Source of the DNA: a virus
IMG/VR virus record: IMGVR_UViG_3300035698_020119
Span: 1-28,510 of that record
Reading direction: 5' to 3' (one strand)
DNA length: 28,510 bases
The translations under genes were made by a program, and so were the position numbers. Position 1 is the first letter of the stretch; every line of letters starts with the position of its first letter. This document shows positions 3,757 to 20,427 of the stretch, in pieces. The notes beneath the pieces are model-generated. The model did not search any database and had not been told where the DNA came from. It saw only the letters and a list, made by a program, of their open reading frames with translations.

Positions 3757-5112
3757 TTAATTATATGTATTATATAAAGTTGTTATTTCAGTTTGTGTTA
3801 ATGCTCTGCCTGAGTAGTATTTTACGTCTGATAGTGAGCCTTCGTAAGTTATTAAGTTTCCCCCATCGTAAAATAAAGAACTTATACTTACATATGTTAA
3901 ATTCGACAAATCATTGAACCAATCTGATCCTGCTGACCTCGATTGTACAACAGAGTCAATATACATCTTCATAGTTGTCCCATCTTGAGTAATCACTACA
4001 TTATGCCAATTTCCGTCATTAACAACATCATCCCCAAGAATATTTGAAGTTATACTAGCACCTGTTTCACCTACCACGTTGACTTGAAATGCTCCAGGGT
4101 TGATTTGAATATTTAACACATTGTGAGTAGTACTCCCCTCTGCAATAGAAAACATAAAACCAGAGTCAGTTGTATTAAACCACAAACTAATACTCCCCTT
4201 AGTGTCATTCCCATAATCAGTAATAAAATCACTAGAGCTTAAATTAACAAAATCACTAGTACCATTAAAACTCATAGCCTTATCAGCTTGTCCCTTTCTG
4301 TCTGTTGTAAATGTTGTTCAAGTTAAAGTTCAATCATTTCAATTTGGTGTTTTATCTCATATTACCGTAGCCGATTTTAAACTTTCTTGACTAAGACTCC
4401 AATCACCAACTAATCATTTGCTTAAACTTCAAGCCTTAAAACTTCATGGATAAGTTTCATATAAAGTTGTTATTTCAGTTTGACTCAATGCTCTATCATA
4501 AACTCTTGCATCATCAATATCTCATTCATAATAATACGTTACTGTTGTAAATCTTCAAAAAGCCATTCAACCTGTAATGTTTGCCGTTTTTGTTGTATCT
4601 GTAAGAGCCAAAACTCAATCAACAAAAGTTTCTCAAGTAGTCGTTGCACTCGTATATCTATAAACTATATGATGCCAACCAATTGCCGATAGTCCTGTAT
4701 TGATTGTATTTCAATATAATCATGCTTGAATTAATCAAGCATTAGTTCCAATATAAGCCGACTCGTTTGGATTCGCTCAATCTCATAAAGTAAACCCTCA
4801 ATACCTTGCTGCTGTATTTGTTCAACTCATCCATACTGACATAGTAAAGTCTGTATTTCAATTGATTGGGTTTCAAGTAATTAAAACAAAATCACTTGTT
4901 CAATTAAAAGTTAATGCTTTATTAGTTTGTCCCTTTCTATCTGTTGTGAATGTAGTTCAAGTTAAAGTTCAATCATTTCAATTTGGTGTTTTATCTCATA
5001 TTACCGTAGCCGATTTTAAACTTTCTTGACTAAGACTCCAATTACCAACTAATCATTTGCTTAAACTTCATGCTTTTAGATTTGATGTTCATGTATTTAA
5101 TTTTATTGTCAT
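3757..5112 (-). CDS. Tail/adsorption protein with two LamG (concanavalin-like) domains
   Basis: 451 residues with two tandem laminin-G/concanavalin-A-like lectin modules, each introduced by the same 49-residue lead (SLSKGLVG..WSLSQESLKS, then a TTFTTDRKGQ..KA stretch). Module 1 spans about residues 65-225 and module 2 about 280-451. Each contains the WHHIVY / NWHNVVIT strand and ends RAL(S/T)QTEITTLY. LamG modules usually bind glycans, so host-surface recognition is likely. Module 2 (3757-4275) uses no TGA for its 16 glycines, whereas the rest of the gene uses TGA for about 29 of 38. This points to a module imported from a standard-code source. A standard-code reading would recover only module 2 as a 172-residue ORF. 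Confidence 0.85.
4285..4431 (-). repeat. 147-bp direct repeat, copy 1 (lead of LamG module 2)
   Basis: Near-identical to 4924-5070, in the same frame and offset 639 nt (213 codons). It encodes the lead segment before LamG module 2 (SLSKGLVGDWSLSQESLKSA and on). Only a handful of substitutions separate the copies, so the duplication is recent or maintained by gene conversion. Confidence 0.85.
4924..5070 (-). repeat. 147-bp direct repeat, copy 2 (lead of LamG module 1)
   Basis: Partner of 4285-4431. The two copies flank LamG module 1, so recombination between them would delete or swap exactly one lectin module. A shorter match of about 23 nt also recurs at the module ends (around 3775 and 4462). 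Confidence 0.85.
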
Positions 5113-10728: not shown

Positions 10729-11637
10729 TTAAACTCAAACTCATGAACTCCTATTTACTGTTAAATCTCATCTATCTAATGAGTTTCAACTCGTTGTTGT
10801 AATATCTATATAATCAATTACATTTAAATATCCTGAAGTATATCATCAACCAAAAAATCAATATGTTGTTCAAGATATTCAAGTAAGGTATCTTTTAGTT
10901 TCTTGTAAATTTCACTTATCTAAAGCGTTTCAAGTTGTAGTAGTAACATCTATATAATCAATTACATTTGAATTACTTGAAATAAGTCATCAACCAAAAA
11001 ATCAATATGTTGTTCATGTAATTCAACATGATCAATATCTAGCTAATGTTAAATTTCATTTATCAGAAGCGTTTCAACTCGTTGAAGTAACATCAATATA
11101 ATCTACTACATCTGAAACAGCCGAAACATATCATCAACCAAAATATCAATATGTCCCTCAAAATACTCATCAAGTTAAATGTCTTCTTGCTACAGACAAA
11201 TCTCACTTGTCTGTAGCATTTCAACTCGTTGAAGTTATATCTATATAATCTACTATATTAGTATTTGTTGCAGATGCATATCCTCAACCAAAAAATCAAT
11301 ATGTTGTTCACGATACTCAACCCAATAAACTTCTAGCTACTGTTAAATTTCATTTATCAGAAGCGTTTCAACTCGTTGAAGTTATATCTATATAATCTAT
11401 TACATCTGAATCGCTTCAAGTTGTTCAACCTCCAAAAAATCAATATGTTGTTCAATATGCTCATCATAAATTACTCCTAGATATTGATAAATCTCACTTG
11501 TCTGTTGCATTTCAACTCGTTGAAGTAACATCAATATAATCAATTACATTACTTACTGATCATGTAGTTCATCCTCAAAAAAATCAATATTCTGGAGTAA
11601 CTACTCAAAATATATATGGATTAATTATAAAATTCAT
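10729..11637 (-). CDS. Kelch-like six-bladed beta-propeller tail protein (302 aa)
   Basis: Six imperfect repeats of 47-50 residues follow the pattern YGFFGGG, a variable loop, NVIDYIDIT-TSGNA-DKGDL, then AR and a variable loop with GTTYG. A GG turn, a DYID strand and a basic-aromatic AR turn match the kelch/galactose-oxidase-type propeller signature. Closely similar repeats (FGGG, IDY, GNATDFGDLT, R) are frequent in marine phage tail proteins. Six blades fit a closed propeller, so the protein probably binds receptor or forms a distal fibre knob. Most of the repeat glycines are TGA. The start overlaps the upstream stop by one base (TAATG). Confidence 0.85.
10729..11637 (-). repeat. Six tandem coding repeats, period 141-150 nt
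   Basis: The segment TCAACCAAAAAATCAATATG (plus-strand reading) and related versions recur at spacings of 144, 144, 150, 141 and about 150 nt (anchor positions 10846, 10990, 11134, 11284, 11425, about 11575). The spacing is a multiple of 3 and matches the propeller blades. Spacers and repeats are both coding, so this is not CRISPR. Confidence 0.9.
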
Positions 11638-12986
11638 TATATTGTTTTGTAACCAATTAAATAAACTTTCAATCAAGTTTCATCAGCTCCTCATGATATT
11701 ACATCAATATCTATTTTTATTTCTGAATCATCAGCCAAACTTGCATCACTTATTACTGCTGCATCTGTTGCTGTTGTACTTGTTAATTCTGTTGCATCTA
11801 TTGTTAATTTTGTACTTAATATTGTTGTTCATGCTTCATTTATATCAACTGTAGTAACTCAGGAAACAGATCAAGCTCATGTTAAACTTGCCCTTACTGC
11901 TGTTAATGTAAAAGCATAAGGCATTCTAAATGTTACTTTTGCCGTTCAAGTTGTTAATGCTGTAGTTTCATCTGAAATAGCCAATATAATACTTTCTATA
12001 TCATCAGTCCGTTCAGGTGCTGTTGCTCAAGTATTCATTCTTATTTTTTGTCCTGCTGTTCATTTAGCAACTCTTGCTAGTTTATTTGAAGTTCTATAAT
12101 ATATATCTCAATCAGCATCACTTCATAAAGTCATCGTTACATCTGCCAATACTGCTCAAGTTCATAACCCTCAAGTTGTTATTGTTCAGATTGTTGTTAG
12201 ATTAGCACATGTTGTAATACTAGCTTGAGTTGCTTGTGTTGTTGCTGTATCAGGTGCAAGTCAAGTAATTGTACTTACTGTTCAAGCCGATCAACTACAA
12301 TTTCAAGTTACATTTCCTGTTAATGGTCAAGCAAATCATGTTGCCGTTAATATAGCTGTACTTGAATTAAATGTTAATCAAGCGTTTGTTTTAGGTCATA
12401 AATCTCATGTTGCTGCTGTGAAAAATGAAACAAAACAAGTTGTATCAATTGCCTCATTTGCTACAGTAATAGCTGTAGGTGTTCATCATCATCATCAAGC
12501 TGCCCAACTTAATACTCAATCTCAAGCTGCATCAGTCAATACTTCTCAAGCTCAAGCTACTGCCAAAGGTAGAGTTAATGTATAACTTCAACTTGTTACT
12601 CATGAATTAATTATTACAGTATTTGCATTTGTTGAATTATATAAAGTTATTCATCATATATTTGTACTTGCTGTTCATAATACCAAAGAACTTGCTGCTG
12701 TAAATGTTCATACTGTTCATTCTATTGTTGATGCATTATTTATAGCTCAGAATCAACTTGTTATTGATCAAGTATCTAATGCTCATACTGTTAATATATT
12801 TGCACTTCAAGCCCATGTTGAAAGTGCTGTATTTTCAACAAGGTTTAAACTCATTCAAGACTTAACTTCTGTAAGAGTTGCTTTCTTCCAAACATTAGCC
12901 GCAGCACTATCAGCAATTAAAAATAAATCAGCTCATACTAATATAGATTTTGCTATTGCCTCAGTCGGAAATATTTTATCTACCAT
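11637..12986 (-). CDS. Tail fibre protein (449 aa)
   Basis: The N-terminal portion is repetitive fibre sequence (NASTIEGTVGTFTAASSLVL; NVTGNCSGSAGTVST) with a SGSYTLTLPLAVAGAGEVLT strand typical of phage fibres. The middle has TLGSDADGDIYYRTSNKLA and RVAKGTAGQKIRMNTGAT. The C-terminal ~130 residues (TFRMPYAFTLTAVRASLTGA, VDINEAGTTILSTKLTID, ending GLKVYLIGYKTI) match a C-terminal fibre domain common in marine phages. TGA at many Gly positions. It starts at the ATG 12986 (AAATAAAAATG) just after the tail hub gene and its stop overlaps the kelch gene start (TAATG). Confidence 0.88.
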
Positions 12987-12995
12987 TTTTATTTT

Positions 12996-14141
12996 TTAAT
13001 AATAAATTTTTATTTGATCTCAATCTGTATTTACAATATTATCTCAGTCTGTATTTAATAAATATGCCTCATCATATACTAAAGTTGATGTTTCTATCTT
13101 AGGTGTTCATACAACTTCCTCTCAAAAAGACAAATATTCATCTAAATATAAAACTACTTTATTTGAAGAATATCATAATCTTATTATTTGCATATTATTA
13201 TTACTAGAACTATTGAAATAAGATAAATTTAATATTTTTACAGTATTTCAAGGATTTATTGTAACAAAATCATATTTATCATTTAAAGTAATTGTATTTT
13301 TATTTTTAAAATCTTTATTTTCTTGTATAAAATTATCTCAAAATTCATTTGCTGTTGAATTAGTTACTAATCTAGTATTTTGTGTACTCTTTTCTTTATA
13401 TCAATAAGTTGTTATACTTGTCATATCATTATATTCAGCATTTCAGCTTTTCCGTTTTAAATATAAATTATTAATTATATTTTCGCTATTTTCTTCTAAA
13501 GTTATTCTTTCAATATCTTTTTGAAAAGTTAATGTATGACTTGATGTTATTGGTTTTAATTTAAAATAAACTTGTCAATCTGCTCATATAAACCAATAAA
13601 AGTTAGTCGTACTCTGAATTAATTTAATTGCATTATATGCAGTAGTATAATCAAAATCCACAGTAACAGAAGTTCCATAATTATCAATATTACCTCAAGT
13701 ATAACTTAATCGACCTCAAGTATATAAAGTATTAAAATAATCAATAATATTTTTTATTATATCTGCAGGTTCACCTCATTCCAAAAATGTATAATCTGTT
13801 CAAGACTTATATATTATATTATTTAATAAAGTTACTAATCATAAACAATTTAATTTAATAGTTTCTGAATTTGTATCTGCTAATCTAATAATTTTTGAAA
13901 TCATTCAAGTATATATTAAATTTCAAGTTTTATTATTTTCATCAAATTCATATATTTTTATAAAATCTGATAGATTAAAATTTGTATTTCAAAACTTTAA
14001 ATCTAAATCAATATCAATATTACTTTGTCATCAGTTTAAATTATTAGTAAACTCAATAGAACTCATAATTTTATCAGGATTTATTACTCATTGCAACACT
14101 CCCAATTGATTATAATATTTAATTTGGTGTTGTTTAATCAT
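12996..14141 (-). CDS. Tail hub / tail-associated protein (381 aa)
   Basis: Position between Dit and the fibres, and fold pattern, point to the siphophage tail hub (Tal-like, gp27-type). The N-terminal ~120 residues are beta-rich (INPDKIMSSIEFTNNLNGGQ; YEFDENNKTGNLIYTGMISK), typical of hub domain 1. Next are LEGGEPADIIKNIIDYFNTL and DFDYTTAYNAIKLIQSTTNF YWFIGADGQVYFKL, a motif seen in hub domain proteins. The remainder includes EENSENIINNLYLKRKSGN and an OB-like segment (TINPGNTVKILNLSY). No C-terminal hydrolase is present. The start ATG (14141) overlaps the Dit stop by one base (TAATG). Confidence 0.78.
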
Positions 14142-14968
14142 TATAAATAAGTTTTTTTATGTAAAATAACTATATCAACATCAAAAGTTCAATCAACTGT
14201 AAAATCTATTGAATTAACTCATGGGTTTAATCGTCTAAACACTCAACTATAATCTACTGCTGTTCAGTTTAAAGTAACTTCTTTTGTTTCTCAATCTAAA
14301 ATTAAAACATCACTATTTGAAATATTTTCATCTATTGTCATTGTATATCAATCAATATCAAAAGTTACTTCTGTTACAGAAACTAATCAAGTATTAAATC
14401 AAAATTGTACCCTATCATCTGCTTTATAACTTCAATAATTAGTAACTTCAATTGTTCAACTAATTATTTGACTCAAAAATTCATCAGACTGATATGATTT
14501 TACTTGCCGATGCGGATCAATTGTTGAAAAAGTTAACTCTATTTCTTGTACAAAAGTTATATTGTAATATTGTCTATTAAATATTAAAGAAGTTACACTA
14601 GCTAGACAACTTCTAATTGTTCAATTTACATTTATATCAAGATCTCATTCAGTTTTATATATATTTTCTTTGAAATCATCAATTAAATCATTTAATTCAG
14701 TAATTGAATTATGACTTAAAGATATTTGTAAAACAATTTCTTTTGACCTAAAAAAATGACCAAGAACTCAACCTCAATCTAGCAAAGGTTTGTTAAAAGT
14801 TGACCATTCTATACTTCATAAATCATCATAGTTAATATTTCTTAATCTAATGGTCGAACCATTGTTTAAACTATATCAATCAAAAACAAAATCATCTTGC
14901 GTTCAAGTTCATACCAAGATTGTTCATCAATTAAGTGTAGATCAATTTAATGTTTTTTGATTTAACAT
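14141..14968 (-). CDS. Distal tail protein (Dit)
   Basis: 275 residues. The N-terminal domain has the Dit-type beginnings of LRNINYDDLGSIEWSTFNKP and DGGGVLGHFFRSKEIVLQIS, then a helix LNDLIDDFKENIYKTEGDLD followed by IDPHRQ. The C-terminal galectin-like part ends FRRLNPGVNSIDFTVDG, the family's usual L-x-x-G-x-N-x-I sequence with that Gly encoded by TGA. Dit forms the hexameric ring joining the tail tube to hub and fibres. The gene lies right after the tape measure gene (8-nt gap). ATG at 14968. Confidence 0.88.
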
Positions 14969-14976
14969 AGATAAAA

Positions 14977-17754
14977 TTAATTAATATTAAAATCTCTTTT
15001 TAATTGTATTTTTCTAGCCAATAATTCAGCAATTCTATTAATATCAGCCTCTTCTCTAATTGTAACATTTCACATATTTATATTAATACTTTGAGAATTA
15101 CTTATTTGATTATTTGGAACGATATTTCAATTATTTTTTGGTACAAATAATTCAGGTCACTTCTCTCAAACAATGTACGGCGATCATCAACTTACAGGTC
15201 ATCAATTAGCTTTAAACTCTGTTCAAACTTTATTTAATTTTTTTACATCGTCACGAGTTCAACTTGAAGTATTTCATCAAAAAAATTTATTTAAACTTTG
15301 CATAGCCTCAATTTGTCTTAATATAGCTTGTCTTTTTGCCTCCATTGCTGTAATGAATACATTTTTTTCGTTTTCAATTTCCTCTAATCTAATATTATAT
15401 TGTTCAGTTTCTAATATTTTTTGTGCTTCTAACTCAATCATTTTAATATTATAGGCATCTGTTTCTAAATCTTTTTTTATTCTTAAAGCCTCAATTTCTT
15501 TATAAACAGTATCAATTTTTTCATTTTTTTCTTTTTGTAATTCATCAAGTTTTCATTGGGTTTCTAATTCAATTTTTTTAACTTTTGATAATGCATCGTA
15601 AATTTCCATTTCATCTAGCTTACTTCAAAGTATATCCTCAGCCAATTGTTTCTCCTCGTTTAATTTAGATATTCTTTCAGTATCTAATACTCATCACTCT
15701 TCTTCTTTTGCTTTTGCCTCAATTTCTTGTATCTCTTGTAAAATATCTTTTCTTCTCTGGAAAATTTGATTTAAACTATCTTGTTTTGTTTCATCAACTG
15801 CTTCATTAAATTCTTTTTTTATATCTCATATTTTTTCAAATAATCAATTCATTTTTTCCTTAATTGCATCAATAGTTTCTATAAACTTTTCTTTAAATCA
15901 TCACATTTTATCATTAATTTTTTGTATATTTTCAGTATATTTATCTTTTAATTTAACCGCCTCCTCTCATAATTTAGTAATTGCTTCTTTTGATTCCATT
16001 CATTTTTCAGCTAATCTTTTTATTTTATCAACAATTTTTCAAATTTCTTGATCAGCAACTTTTCTCATATCTTCTAATTTTTTTGTTATATTTTTTATTT
16101 CCTCAGCTGTTTTTTTTGCTCATCAACTTACTCATCATAAACTTACCTCTATTTCTTGAACACTTGTATTTGTTTTTTTTACACCTTTTTCTAAATTAAT
16201 AAAATAATTATCAATTGTATTATTTTGCGTTTCTAATTCAGCACCTAAATTAACCCATGCTCACTTCAATCAAGATAAATCAGACATTAATCAACCAGTA
16301 AAATCAGACCAATCTTTACTTAATCATTCACTTACATTCATTTCACTAAATCAACTTGAAGTCATTTTCCTCATTCAATCTCAAATCGTATCTAAACTAA
16401 ATCATAATTTTGATAATCATTTATTAATTAAAACTATAAATTGATTAATTTTAGAAATTCAATCAACAACGGCATTTTGAAAAAATACAACAATTTTCTC
16501 TCACATAACTTTGAATAAATCTCAAACCGCCATGACCATAATTTTCATTAATTCAAATCAATGATTCTTTAAAAATTTAAATCCGTCCATAATTCATTTT
16601 ATAATTATAACATCTATTTTTAATAAAGTATAGAAAGCTGTTCAAACTGCTTTTAATCCTGCTATCATTCATTGTAAAATTTTCGCAAAAGTCCACCCCC
16701 ATTTAATAGCTGTTTTTGAATTTCCAAACATTCGCGTTGTTAATGATGAAAATAATGATCATGCAAATTTTAAAACTTCTAAAATTACTGAACCAAACAT
16801 CTTAAAAGCCTCTATAACTAAATAAGTTGTTGCCTGTACAGTTCACATTACTTCATCACTTTCCAAGAAAGTTTTTATTAAATTAGAAATTTCACCTATC
16901 AATGGTACTATTTCTTTGAGAAACATTTTCATTGCAGGCGTTAAACTCTCACTCATAGCCTCCTTAACATCTTTAATGACTGCAGCAAGTTTTGCCTGTT
17001 GTCTTATAAGACTTCAAGCTCATAACCTATACGCTTCTTGTGCGTCAGTTGATTTTTCTAAAATTTGTTTTTGAATATCAAGAGCTTTCGCTTGTTGCAA
17101 AGTTTTTCAAGTTAATTCTGCTATTTGTGCAATTCTAGCATTAAAAATAGGAGAAGATTGGTCAATTACTATTCACATTTGCTTTAATTGTTCAACCTCT
17201 CATAATAATGCTTTTGATAATATTTCGGAAGTTTCTGCTGCGGTATATTGTCAATTACTCCATTCTGATAATGCTCAAGAAAGAGTTGTCATTTCAGTAG
17301 CCATTTTAGCGGATTCCTCTCTTGTAAATTTCATAGGAATAAGAATATCTGCAATATTAGTTGTAGCTTTTATAAATTCATTATTTGTTAAACCCATTGA
17401 AGAAGCAATTGAATTTGCTGTTTCTTCTACTTGTCATCTAAACTCTCATAATACAATATCAGCTTTATTATTAACTAATTCTAACTCTGTAGCAAGTCTT
17501 CATAATTCCACTCAAAAAGAAATTATTTGATGAACGGCAAAAGCTCAAGCAACTGCAACCCCTAAACTTTTCATACTAGTTGACATAGATTTAGTTAAAT
17601 CTTGAGTTTTTACTGACATATCTTTTAATTCTTTTGTTGCGTTTCAAGTCTGTTTTTTAATATTACCTAAATCCTTAGACACTTTTTGCAGGTCTTTACT
17701 CATCTTGTTTTTCGCCTCTAACAAAAGATTAATTTTATAATCAGTACTTGCCAA
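14977..17754 (-). CDS. Tape measure protein (925 aa)
   Basis: Longest gene in the window. The N-terminus is coiled coil (EAKNKMSKDLQKVSKDL), then a membrane-like helix near residue 70 (SMKSLGVAVAGAFAVHQIIS) and the conserved segment FGVELGRLATELELVNNKAD and TGKTLQQAKALDIQKQILEK. Long hydrophobic helices occupy the middle, then charged coiled coils. The end (NMNVTIREEADINRIAELLA) is the usual tape-measure C-terminus. It sets tail length and acts in genome delivery. A TAA lies 4 codons upstream of the first plausible start, so initiation is probably TTG at 17754 (LASTDYKINLLLEAKNK); the first ATG (17703) would drop 17 residues of that conserved start. Length predicts a tail of about 140 nm by the 1.5 angstrom per residue rule. 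Confidence 0.92.
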
Positions 17755-18415: not shown

Positions 18416-19195
18416 TTATCCTGTATAAGCATTAATATAATGTACTACTCAATCAACCGTTATTTTTATTTTTTTAGCTGTTCATGCTGTTTCAGCTGTA
18501 TCACTTATCATAGCCGAACAAGTATCAAATTCTATAAATGCAACTGCCGCAGGTGTTCTAAAATACATTACTTGATCAAGTGCTGTAGTTCAATTTTCTG
18601 TTCAATATATTAATTGATAACTTCCTGTGATTGCACTATCAAGATGAGTATCTAACCAACAAGATGCAACATGAGTTGCTGTAATTGCTTGTCAACCCTC
18701 TTCGATTAATCAATATAATCAAGCCATAAATGAACTACCTGTTAATGTACCCTCTGATCTTGCTTGACCATAAGCTCCAATTAAAGTACCTCAAGTTAAT
18801 GTAAATGTTGCATCTAATACCGCTGTATTTAAACTTCATGTTAATGATGCTGTACCTGTTGCACTTATTTTACAATCATTATATACTCAATATTGTGCTC
18901 AGCTTGTATTTACTGACTCGTATTTATATTCGTTATTAATTGCAGAAGTTGAGTCGTGATTATGCATTTTTAAAGATTTTTGTGCACTATCATTATCATT
19001 TCTATAAATTTGTCAAATTACTTTTTGATTAACATTTAGATCAGTAACAAATTCAAAATCTGAATCTTGATTTACTAATTCTCTCCCTTTTCAATCTTCA
19101 CAACTAATTATCTGATTAACTAAAATTGTTTCAGAAATTCAATTTAAAACTTCTACTCAAGTTTTACTTTCTGATCATCCATTTTTTATAAGCAT
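18416..19195 (-). CDS. Virion protein, decoration/minor-tail type (259 aa)
   Basis: An N-terminal short region resembles nothing I can name. Central and C-terminal parts are beta-rich (ISATGTASLTGSLNTAVLDA; GGTLIGAYGQARSEGTLTGS) followed by the segment FMAGLYGLIEEGGQAITATH, ISxx CWLDTHLD, and a C-terminal KKIKITVDGVVHYINAYTG. That last strand, with K-I-K-I/V-TxDGxxHYI-x-AY, matches the end of phage virion proteins of the head-decoration/structural type, though here it sits between the major tail protein and the chaperone. It may be a second tube or tail-surface protein. About 17 Gly codons are TGA. Confidence 0.65.
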
Positions 19196-19224
19196 TTTAA
19201 TTTTTTTTATATATATAAATAAAT

Positions 19225-20427
19225 TTAATATCAAGTTGCATTATCGTTTAATAATAATACTTCTATTTGTGCAGAAGTATCAACATCGTATTGTCATGAG
19301 TATCACATAGTTTGCTTAATTATATCATTTGCCGAATCTGTTTTTGTCCATTCTTTAAATCATACTTTCATAAAATCAATAAACATTGAAGGAAAAATTT
19401 GACTAGCTACTAAAGCGGTTACATCATCATTTATTAATTCAAATCTAGTAGCTTTTTTATCGCTATCAATTACATAATTTCTCAAAGTAACTGAATTATA
19501 TAATGCTTCAAAATCTCATTCAGTTGTAAATTGTTGATTATGTAGACTATCAATGTCAGTACTTCAAAAACATTGTATATCAGTAAGATTTTTATTAATT
19601 GCTAATCTAAAGTTTTGCATACATACGGCTGTCGCTGCATTCAAAGCTCATTCAGTTGCTGCAAAATATACATTTGAATCCATTGCTCTAAATGGATTTT
19701 CAGCAGAATAACTAGGTATTTGAGCAGATGCTGTTGCCATTTGTTGTCCCCAATATTCAGCAGAAAATTTTACATAATCCCCAACTTCAGCGGATAATTC
19801 CAAAGTATTCACCATTCAATAAGTTGATGAAACTGCTCCAACTGGATCATCATCATATAAAGTGTATGTTTGATGACTATTATCATTATTTCTACTAAAG
19901 AAATGTCATTTAACTGCAGAAGTTGCTGTAACTCAAACAGTTGCTGTCCGTGTTCAATTTGTCACCGTATCAGCATTTCATAAAGTTCAACTTGTTGTTG
20001 AAACAAAATAATAAGTTGTCAGTGTTCCTCATAAACTTAATATTTTTTTAATTTCTCAAATCCATGTTTCACTTGCAGGAGCTCAAACATAAGCTATATC
20101 TCATCTTGCAGGAGTTCATCACGACGGACTAGGAAGTGTTATACATTGAACTTGATCATAACTTCATAATGCTCAATATAATAAATGTCAAATAAAATCA
20201 TCTCTTGTAATTCCTCATAAAGTAATCTTTGAAAAGTTTTTAGTAGTTGCAGAATCATAAACTTCATCAATTACTCAATATCAACTTGCATCTATTGCTT
20301 CCTCAAATTCAGGTATTAATACTCAAGTTTCTTTTGGAATCCGTACATCAGCGACTGCTATTGTTCAAGCTGTTGACTCTTTTCATAATCAAACTGCGGA
20401 TAATCTTCATATATGTTCGTTTGCCAT
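19225..20427 (-). CDS. Major tail tube protein (400 aa)
   Basis: 400 residues, starting MANEHIGRLSAVGLGKESTA and continuing VADVRIPKETG, the beginning of siphophage tail tube proteins that polymerise into hexameric rings around the tape measure. A conserved stretch HFFSRNNDNSHQTYTLYDDD, then TLELSAEVGDYVKFSAEYWG, is typical. C-terminal half has GDFEALYNSVTLRNYVIDSD and ASQIFPSMFIDFMKVGFKEW. Its length suggests an added surface domain. An AAAAGGAAAATG start provides a weak Shine-Dalgarno. Located upstream of the decoration-type protein and chaperone, as expected. Confidence 0.85.

What the first reader, a model, noticed from the sequence alone, without database searches (positions are those of the whole stretch)
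3757..4275. LamG lectin module with no TGA codons inside a TGA-rich gene: likely import from a standard-code source
The C-terminal LamG module has 16 glycines, all GGN, over 172 codons, so it stays open even in the standard code. In the rest of the same gene about 29 of 38 glycines are TGA. Its base composition is also less AT-biased. The edges coincide with repeated lead and tail sequences that also flank module 1. The simplest explanation is recent domain acquisition from a phage or host using the standard code, inserted by homology at the shared flanks. It would show that adsorption domains cross the code barrier.
Basis: partly seen in the sequence, partly recalled or inferred. Interest (0 to 1): 0.82.

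Follow-up and report, generated by a model that had tools for sequence, protein, structure and literature searches.

The report
Imported lectin domain in recoded phage
A phage that reads the stop codon TGA as glycine carries one recently acquired sugar-binding-type domain in a tail-adhesin gene that never uses TGA, so it very probably came from a genome that does not use the recoded codon, and the piece works unchanged under both codes.

Summary
In the code-25 gene 3757-5112(-), 29 of the first 38 glycines are TGA, but the last LamG module has 16 GGN and no TGA (17 GGN in a row counting codon 274). The longest such run elsewhere in the window is 5, and 20,000 shuffles never exceed 10. Its other codons are also the most atypical in the window (GC3 0.26 against about 0.11).

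The foreign piece spans about 3808-4317: a whole beta-sandwich between a native N-terminal lead and a native C-terminal helix with a TAA stop. GGN/TGA states are at equilibrium between this phage and a sister with 57% protein identity. The import is therefore much younger than that split.

Import is well supported. "Standard-code source" is likely but not proven. All detectable relatives are about 30% identical, and a top hit in a standard-code phage proves nothing, because the TGA-rich module 1 gives the same result. Code-25 hosts, and relatives of this very phage, use TGA for anywhere from about 15% to nearly all glycines, so a TGA-poor code-25 donor remains possible. The underlying kinds (receptor-binding domain shuffling; code-11-compatible phages of code-25 hosts) are published. 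What looks new is the datable domain-level case.

The parts
3757..5112 (-). Code-25 CDS, 451 aa: two-LamG tail adhesin / receptor-binding-type protein
   Evidence: PF13385 6.9e-24, two domains; phrog_8510 virion structural protein 6.2e-18 and phrog_24534 tail fiber protein 4.9e-5 over residues 276-430
4885..5070 (-). Lead 1 (codons 15-76), N-terminal part of LamG module 1, TGA-rich
   Evidence: repeat D1; codon alignment
4447..4884 (-). LamG module 1 body and tail (codons 77-222); TGA-rich (15 TGA / 5 GGN over codons 72-222), mildly atypical codons
4318..4431 (-). Lead 2, near-identical to lead 1 (codons 228-265 vs 15-52, 1/114 nt differ); native TGA-coded
3808..4317 (-). Imported-looking LamG beta-sandwich (codons 266-435): 17 GGN, 0 TGA, GC3 about 0.25; left boundary between 4317 and 4263
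3757..3807 (-). Native-looking C-terminal tail (codons 436-451, alpha-helix in the model) and TAA stop; 33/36 nt identical to the tail of module 1 over codons 436-447

Best explanation
The gene encodes a two-domain LamG (concanavalin-A-like jelly-roll) protein at the 3' end of the tail module of a code-25 siphophage of Gracilibacteria-type hosts, most likely a receptor-binding or adhesion protein that docks the virion to surface glycans (function inferred). Its last beta-sandwich was recently replaced by a piece from a genome that does not use TGA for glycine: a standard-code phage or bacterium, or a 'code-11-compatible' phage in the same host. The exchange used homology at the conserved LamG ends, so the native lead, the native C-terminal helix and the native TAA stop were kept (exchange mechanism inferred). 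The segment is translated identically in both codes because GGN is glycine in each, so no code barrier exists in this direction. The reverse transfer of the TGA-rich module 1 would be truncated.
For: Shown: 0 TGA in 16-17 Gly against 79% elsewhere, with the run exceeding all 20,000 shuffles. Independent non-glycine codon anomaly and GC3, the extreme of the window. Sharp step in lead identity exactly after the last TGA, and native-coded tail. The crossovers fall outside the main predicted beta-sandwich body (model residues 39-208 are the imported part, C-terminal helix 213-222 native). At Gly sites conserved between this phage and sister G001, GGN in one is TGA in the other in 73-74% of cases (27/37, 29/39), near the 79% equilibrium, so a vertically inherited module would be mostly TGA; the import is younger than about 0.2-0.4 of the split age. 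The LamG gene is absent from G001, so the slot is accessory. 41 of 41 LamG domains from code-25 DNA contain TGA; mean chance of 0/16 from such donors is 1.4%. Non-glycine codons fit standard-code LamG phage contigs of about 32-39% GC best. Published: 34 of 38 spacer-linked Gracilibacteria phages over 20 kb are not clearly alternatively coded (PMC10746230), a donor pool inside the same hosts.
Against: No donor found: best relatives are about 30% identical over the domain. Code-25 hosts and phages with low TGA use exist. The high GGG share (6 of 15) fits no fetched source especially well. One gene in one contig; read coverage is not available.
Confidence: 0.74

Rival explanations
1. Recent import, but from a code-25 phage or host that uses TGA rarely, so no code boundary was crossed.
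For: TGA/Gly is 0.15-0.19 in phage relatives L211-L213 (60% identical tail protein, GC 0.37; TGA opposite conserved Gly) and 0.16-0.28 in RF2-lacking genomes G198, G272, G117. LamG domains with 1/12 or 1/11 TGA occur in code-25 DNA.
Against: Chance of 0/16 is at most 7% for the lowest-TGA relative, 0.7% averaged over relatives and 1.4% over code-25 LamG domains. Non-glycine codons of L211-L213 fit the module worse than standard-code LamG contigs (nonGly -136 to -143 vs about -122). No PF13385 match in the L211-L213 records.
Confidence: 0.18
2. Assembly chimera: the near-identical 114-nt leads let the assembler join a different variant.
For: Lead copies are 1/114 different, long enough to confuse short-read assembly.
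Against: Any variant sharing the lead k-mers would itself be a TGA-using phage joined to a TGA-free module, so the import would merely move to another genome. The right junction shares only 33/36 nt, no long exact match, and the frame stays open through lead, module and tail into a native TAA.
Confidence: 0.04
3. In-place change: selection or gene conversion removed TGA from this domain (for example for translation efficiency or for standalone expression from ATG codon 280 in a standard-code cell).
For: The 172-codon ORF from ATG 4275 is open in the standard code.
Against: Non-glycine codons and GC3 are shifted too, glycines use the otherwise rare GGG and GGC (8 of 15), and body DNA is unrelated to module 1. 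No other gene of the window shows it.
Confidence: 0.04

Closest known systems
Domain mosaicism of phage receptor-binding proteins (Smug et al. 2023, PMC10684548)
   Same: Recent swapping of a binding domain inside a tail adhesin while the scaffold stays
   Different: Here the swapped piece carries the mark of a source that does not use the recipient's recoded codon
Code-11-compatible phages of Gracilibacteria/Absconditabacteria (Liu et al. 2023, PMC10746230)
   Same: TGA-free coding that is valid under both codes inside code-25 hosts; a likely donor pool
   Different: There whole genomes are TGA-free; here one domain inside a TGA-dense gene. LamG and tail fibres are not mentioned in that paper
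Laminin_G_3 / ConA-like lectin domains of cyanophage structural proteins (S-PM2, ACG-2014h)
   Same: Same fold and family; best full-length annotated phage hits to module 2 (tblastn 1e-10, 30%; BFVD matches)
   Different: Standard-code cyanophages; low identity; no evidence of direct descent

Membership tests
Laminin_G_3 (PF13385), ConA-like lectin superfamily | Profile match above the curated cut-off over the full domain | tested here: met
   44.7 bits vs 27.6, profile 2-150/151
Laminin_G_3 (PF13385), ConA-like lectin superfamily | Jelly-roll beta-sandwich fold | tested here: met
   AF2 pLDDT 79.7, pTM 0.82; Foldseek hits to LNS/LG domains and phage ConA-like proteins
Laminin_G_3 (PF13385), ConA-like lectin superfamily | Glycan or receptor binding | not testable with these tools
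   needs binding assay
Phage tail adhesin / receptor-binding protein | Encoded downstream of tape measure and Dit, before lysis genes | tested here: met
   tape measure 14977-17754, Dit 14141-14968, amidase 1523-2077
Phage tail adhesin / receptor-binding protein | Presence in the virion tail and role in adsorption | not testable with these tools
   inferred from position and PHROG matches only
Code 25 (TGA = glycine) genome | Dense in-frame TGA at glycine positions; open frames only with TGA read | tested here: met
   ORF coverage 0.09 in code 11 vs 0.82 in code 25; 7.2 TGA per 100 codons; TGA aligned with Gly in relatives
Horizontal import from a standard-code genome | Foreign codon signature against neighbours | tested here: met
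Horizontal import from a standard-code genome | A closely related donor sequence in a standard-code genome | tested here: inconclusive
   only about 30% relatives found; the TGA-rich module 1 gives the same kind of hits

The most novel reading that the evidence does not exclude
A code-25 phage replaced its terminal lectin sandwich by recombining with a standard-code (or code-11-compatible) phage in a shared host. This would be a datable, one-way passage of an adsorption domain across a genetic-code boundary, with the GGN-to-TGA conversion acting as a molecular clock for such imports.
Probability: 0.45. Interest if true: 0.7.

Novelty: new variant of a known kind. Interest (0 to 1): 0.5.

Why it matters
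Alternative codes are often discussed as barriers to gene flow. Here the barrier is directional: GGN-coded DNA enters a TGA=Gly genome freely, while TGA-rich genes cannot go back. Because conserved Gly sites between related code-25 phages are already randomised between GGN and TGA, a TGA-free stretch marks a recent arrival. That gives a simple scan for imported host-recognition domains in recoded phages and Gracilibacteria, and a lead to which standard-code phages share their cells.

Tried and rejected
Top-hit test for the donor: rejected as non-diagnostic, because TGA-rich module 1 also hits standard-code sequences best.

Pattern scan for TGA-coded LamG in viral contigs: 24 matches; none of those loci is TGA-dense, so taken as chance.

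80 LamG viral loci: none is TGA-dense, but the search patterns seem to back-translate Gly as GGN, so that count is biased and not used as proof.

P(0/16) against the phage's own TGA rate only rules out vertical descent, not every code-25 donor. This led to the survey of low-TGA genomes.

G158:C20 LamG without TGA (L245): the neighbouring frames on that contig also nearly lack TGA, so it is treated as standard-coded or contaminating DNA and left out of the 41 code-25 domains.

Portal and capsid scans for sister phages gave only G001; the tail-protein scan (window 20000-20424) gave 30 loci.

Clostridial neurotoxin binding domains among fold hits (12-18% identity) share only the lectin fold; no functional reading is drawn.

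Full report
What is there. The window is part of a siphophage genome read with TGA as glycine: ORF coverage is 0.09 under code 11 and 0.82 under code 25. Reading the minus strand, it runs portal, head protease, major capsid, minor tail protein, tape measure, Dit, further tail-region proteins, a two-LamG protein (3757-5112), then small unknown proteins and an amidase. The LamG protein matches Laminin_G_3 twice and PHROG virion structural and tail-fibre families. It is absent from the largely collinear sister phage G001 (63% identical capsid), so it sits in a variable slot. Adhesin function is inferred from fold, position and these family matches, not shown.

The observation. Every count in the finding holds: 16 GGN and no TGA in 3757-4275, 29 TGA of 38 Gly before it. 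A run of 17 GGN glycines is far outside chance, and a separate anomaly in all other codons and in GC3 supports it. Composition is shifted at codon positions 1 and 3.

Edges. Aligning the two leads codon by codon shows 1 difference in 114 nt up to codon 265 and 14 in 72 nt after it. The last TGA is codon 265. On the right, similarity with module 1 resumes at codon 436 and holds through the C-terminal helix, with 16 of 16 third positions A or T. In the AlphaFold2 model (pLDDT 79.7, pTM 0.82) the atypical piece is residues 39-208, the whole beta-sandwich after the first two short strands. The native parts are the N-terminal lead and the C-terminal helix. Comparison with phage relatives shows that the lead (GLVGxW..., GNDGT, FNGTSDFV) is the ordinary N-terminus of LamG domains. 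The 'flanks' are therefore domain ends that can serve as homology arms.

Age. Across 21 aligned genes of this phage and G001 (57% identity), sites that are glycine in both show TGA/TGA 151, TGA/GGN 29, GGN/TGA 27, GGN/GGN 10. A GGN site in one phage is TGA in the other 73-74% of the time, close to the 79% equilibrium. Under a simple two-state model, no change in 16 sites puts the import at less than about 0.2 (at most 0.4) of the age of the split. This is a rough estimate that assumes equal rates.

Source. The domain's relatives are cyanophage and other viral LamG proteins at about 30% identity, Patescibacteria adhesins at the same level, and one standard-code phage at 42% over about half the domain. 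Two peptide-pattern scans of 2.9 million viral contigs gave nothing closer than short local matches. TGA-rich module 1 also hits standard-code sequences best, so hits of this kind cannot reveal the donor.

Could a code-25 donor give 0/16? TGA use varies widely. In Gracilibacteria-type genomes, stretches range from 5-9% (G022, where TGA sits at conserved LamG glycines, though that bin also has a full-length RF2) through 16-28% in G198, G272 and G117, which have only the lower-scoring RF1-type match with TGA inside it, to about 90%. Among 30 relatives of this phage's minor tail protein, 25 are code 25 with TGA/Gly 0.15-0.88; five form a separate standard-code clade. Averaged over 41 code-25 LamG domains the chance of 0/16 is 1.4%, and over the 25 phage relatives 0.7%, with a maximum of 7%. 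Non-glycine codons fit standard-code contigs of about 32-39% GC best, better than L211-L213. I therefore put about 0.74 on a TGA-free source and 0.18 on a TGA-poor code-25 source.

Known background. Liu et al. 2023 (PMC10746230) report that most spacer-linked Gracilibacteria phages are compatible with the standard code, and argue there is no fundamental barrier. The Codetta screen (eLife 2021, PMC8629427) confirms TGA=Gly in this group. Smug et al. 2023 (PMC10684548; [quoted passage not shown] The present case joins these lines at the scale of a single domain, but rests on one gene in one contig.

Verdict. Observation confirmed; recent import well supported; standard-code origin probable, not proven; mechanism (homologous exchange at LamG ends in a shared host) inferred.

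Noticed in passing
L210-L239 (relatives of the minor tail protein at window 19225-20427): One phage tail-protein family spans standard-code members (L228-L232, GC 0.45-0.59) and code-25 members whose TGA share of glycine ranges from 0.15 to 0.88, with nearest relatives of the window differing from 0.32 to 0.83: a natural series for studying code change in phages.
   Followed up: partly
L187, L188 (genome G022): Giant LamG adhesin frames carry sparse in-frame TGA (5-9% of Gly) at conserved glycine positions while most neighbouring genes have none, and the same bin holds a full-length RF2: chimeric bin or intermediate stage of reassignment.
   Followed up: partly
window 4447-4884: Module 1 of the same gene is mildly codon-atypical (GC3 in the top 5% of windows, codon score in the lowest 8%) with 15/20 TGA: possibly an older import already converted to TGA.
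   Followed up: no
window 4318-4431 and 4957-5070: The two leads differ by 1 nt in 114, a very recent duplication or gene conversion inside the adhesin gene.
   Followed up: partly
window 18416-19234: Second-longest GGN-only run (5 glycines) and a lower TGA share (16/27) in an otherwise TGA-rich region.
   Followed up: no
window 10729-11700: Protein of repeated YGFFGGG...DYIDVTSTSGNA.DKG units, looking like a Kelch-type repeat tail protein, overlapping the end of the next upstream ORF in another frame; no supporting family match.
   Followed up: no
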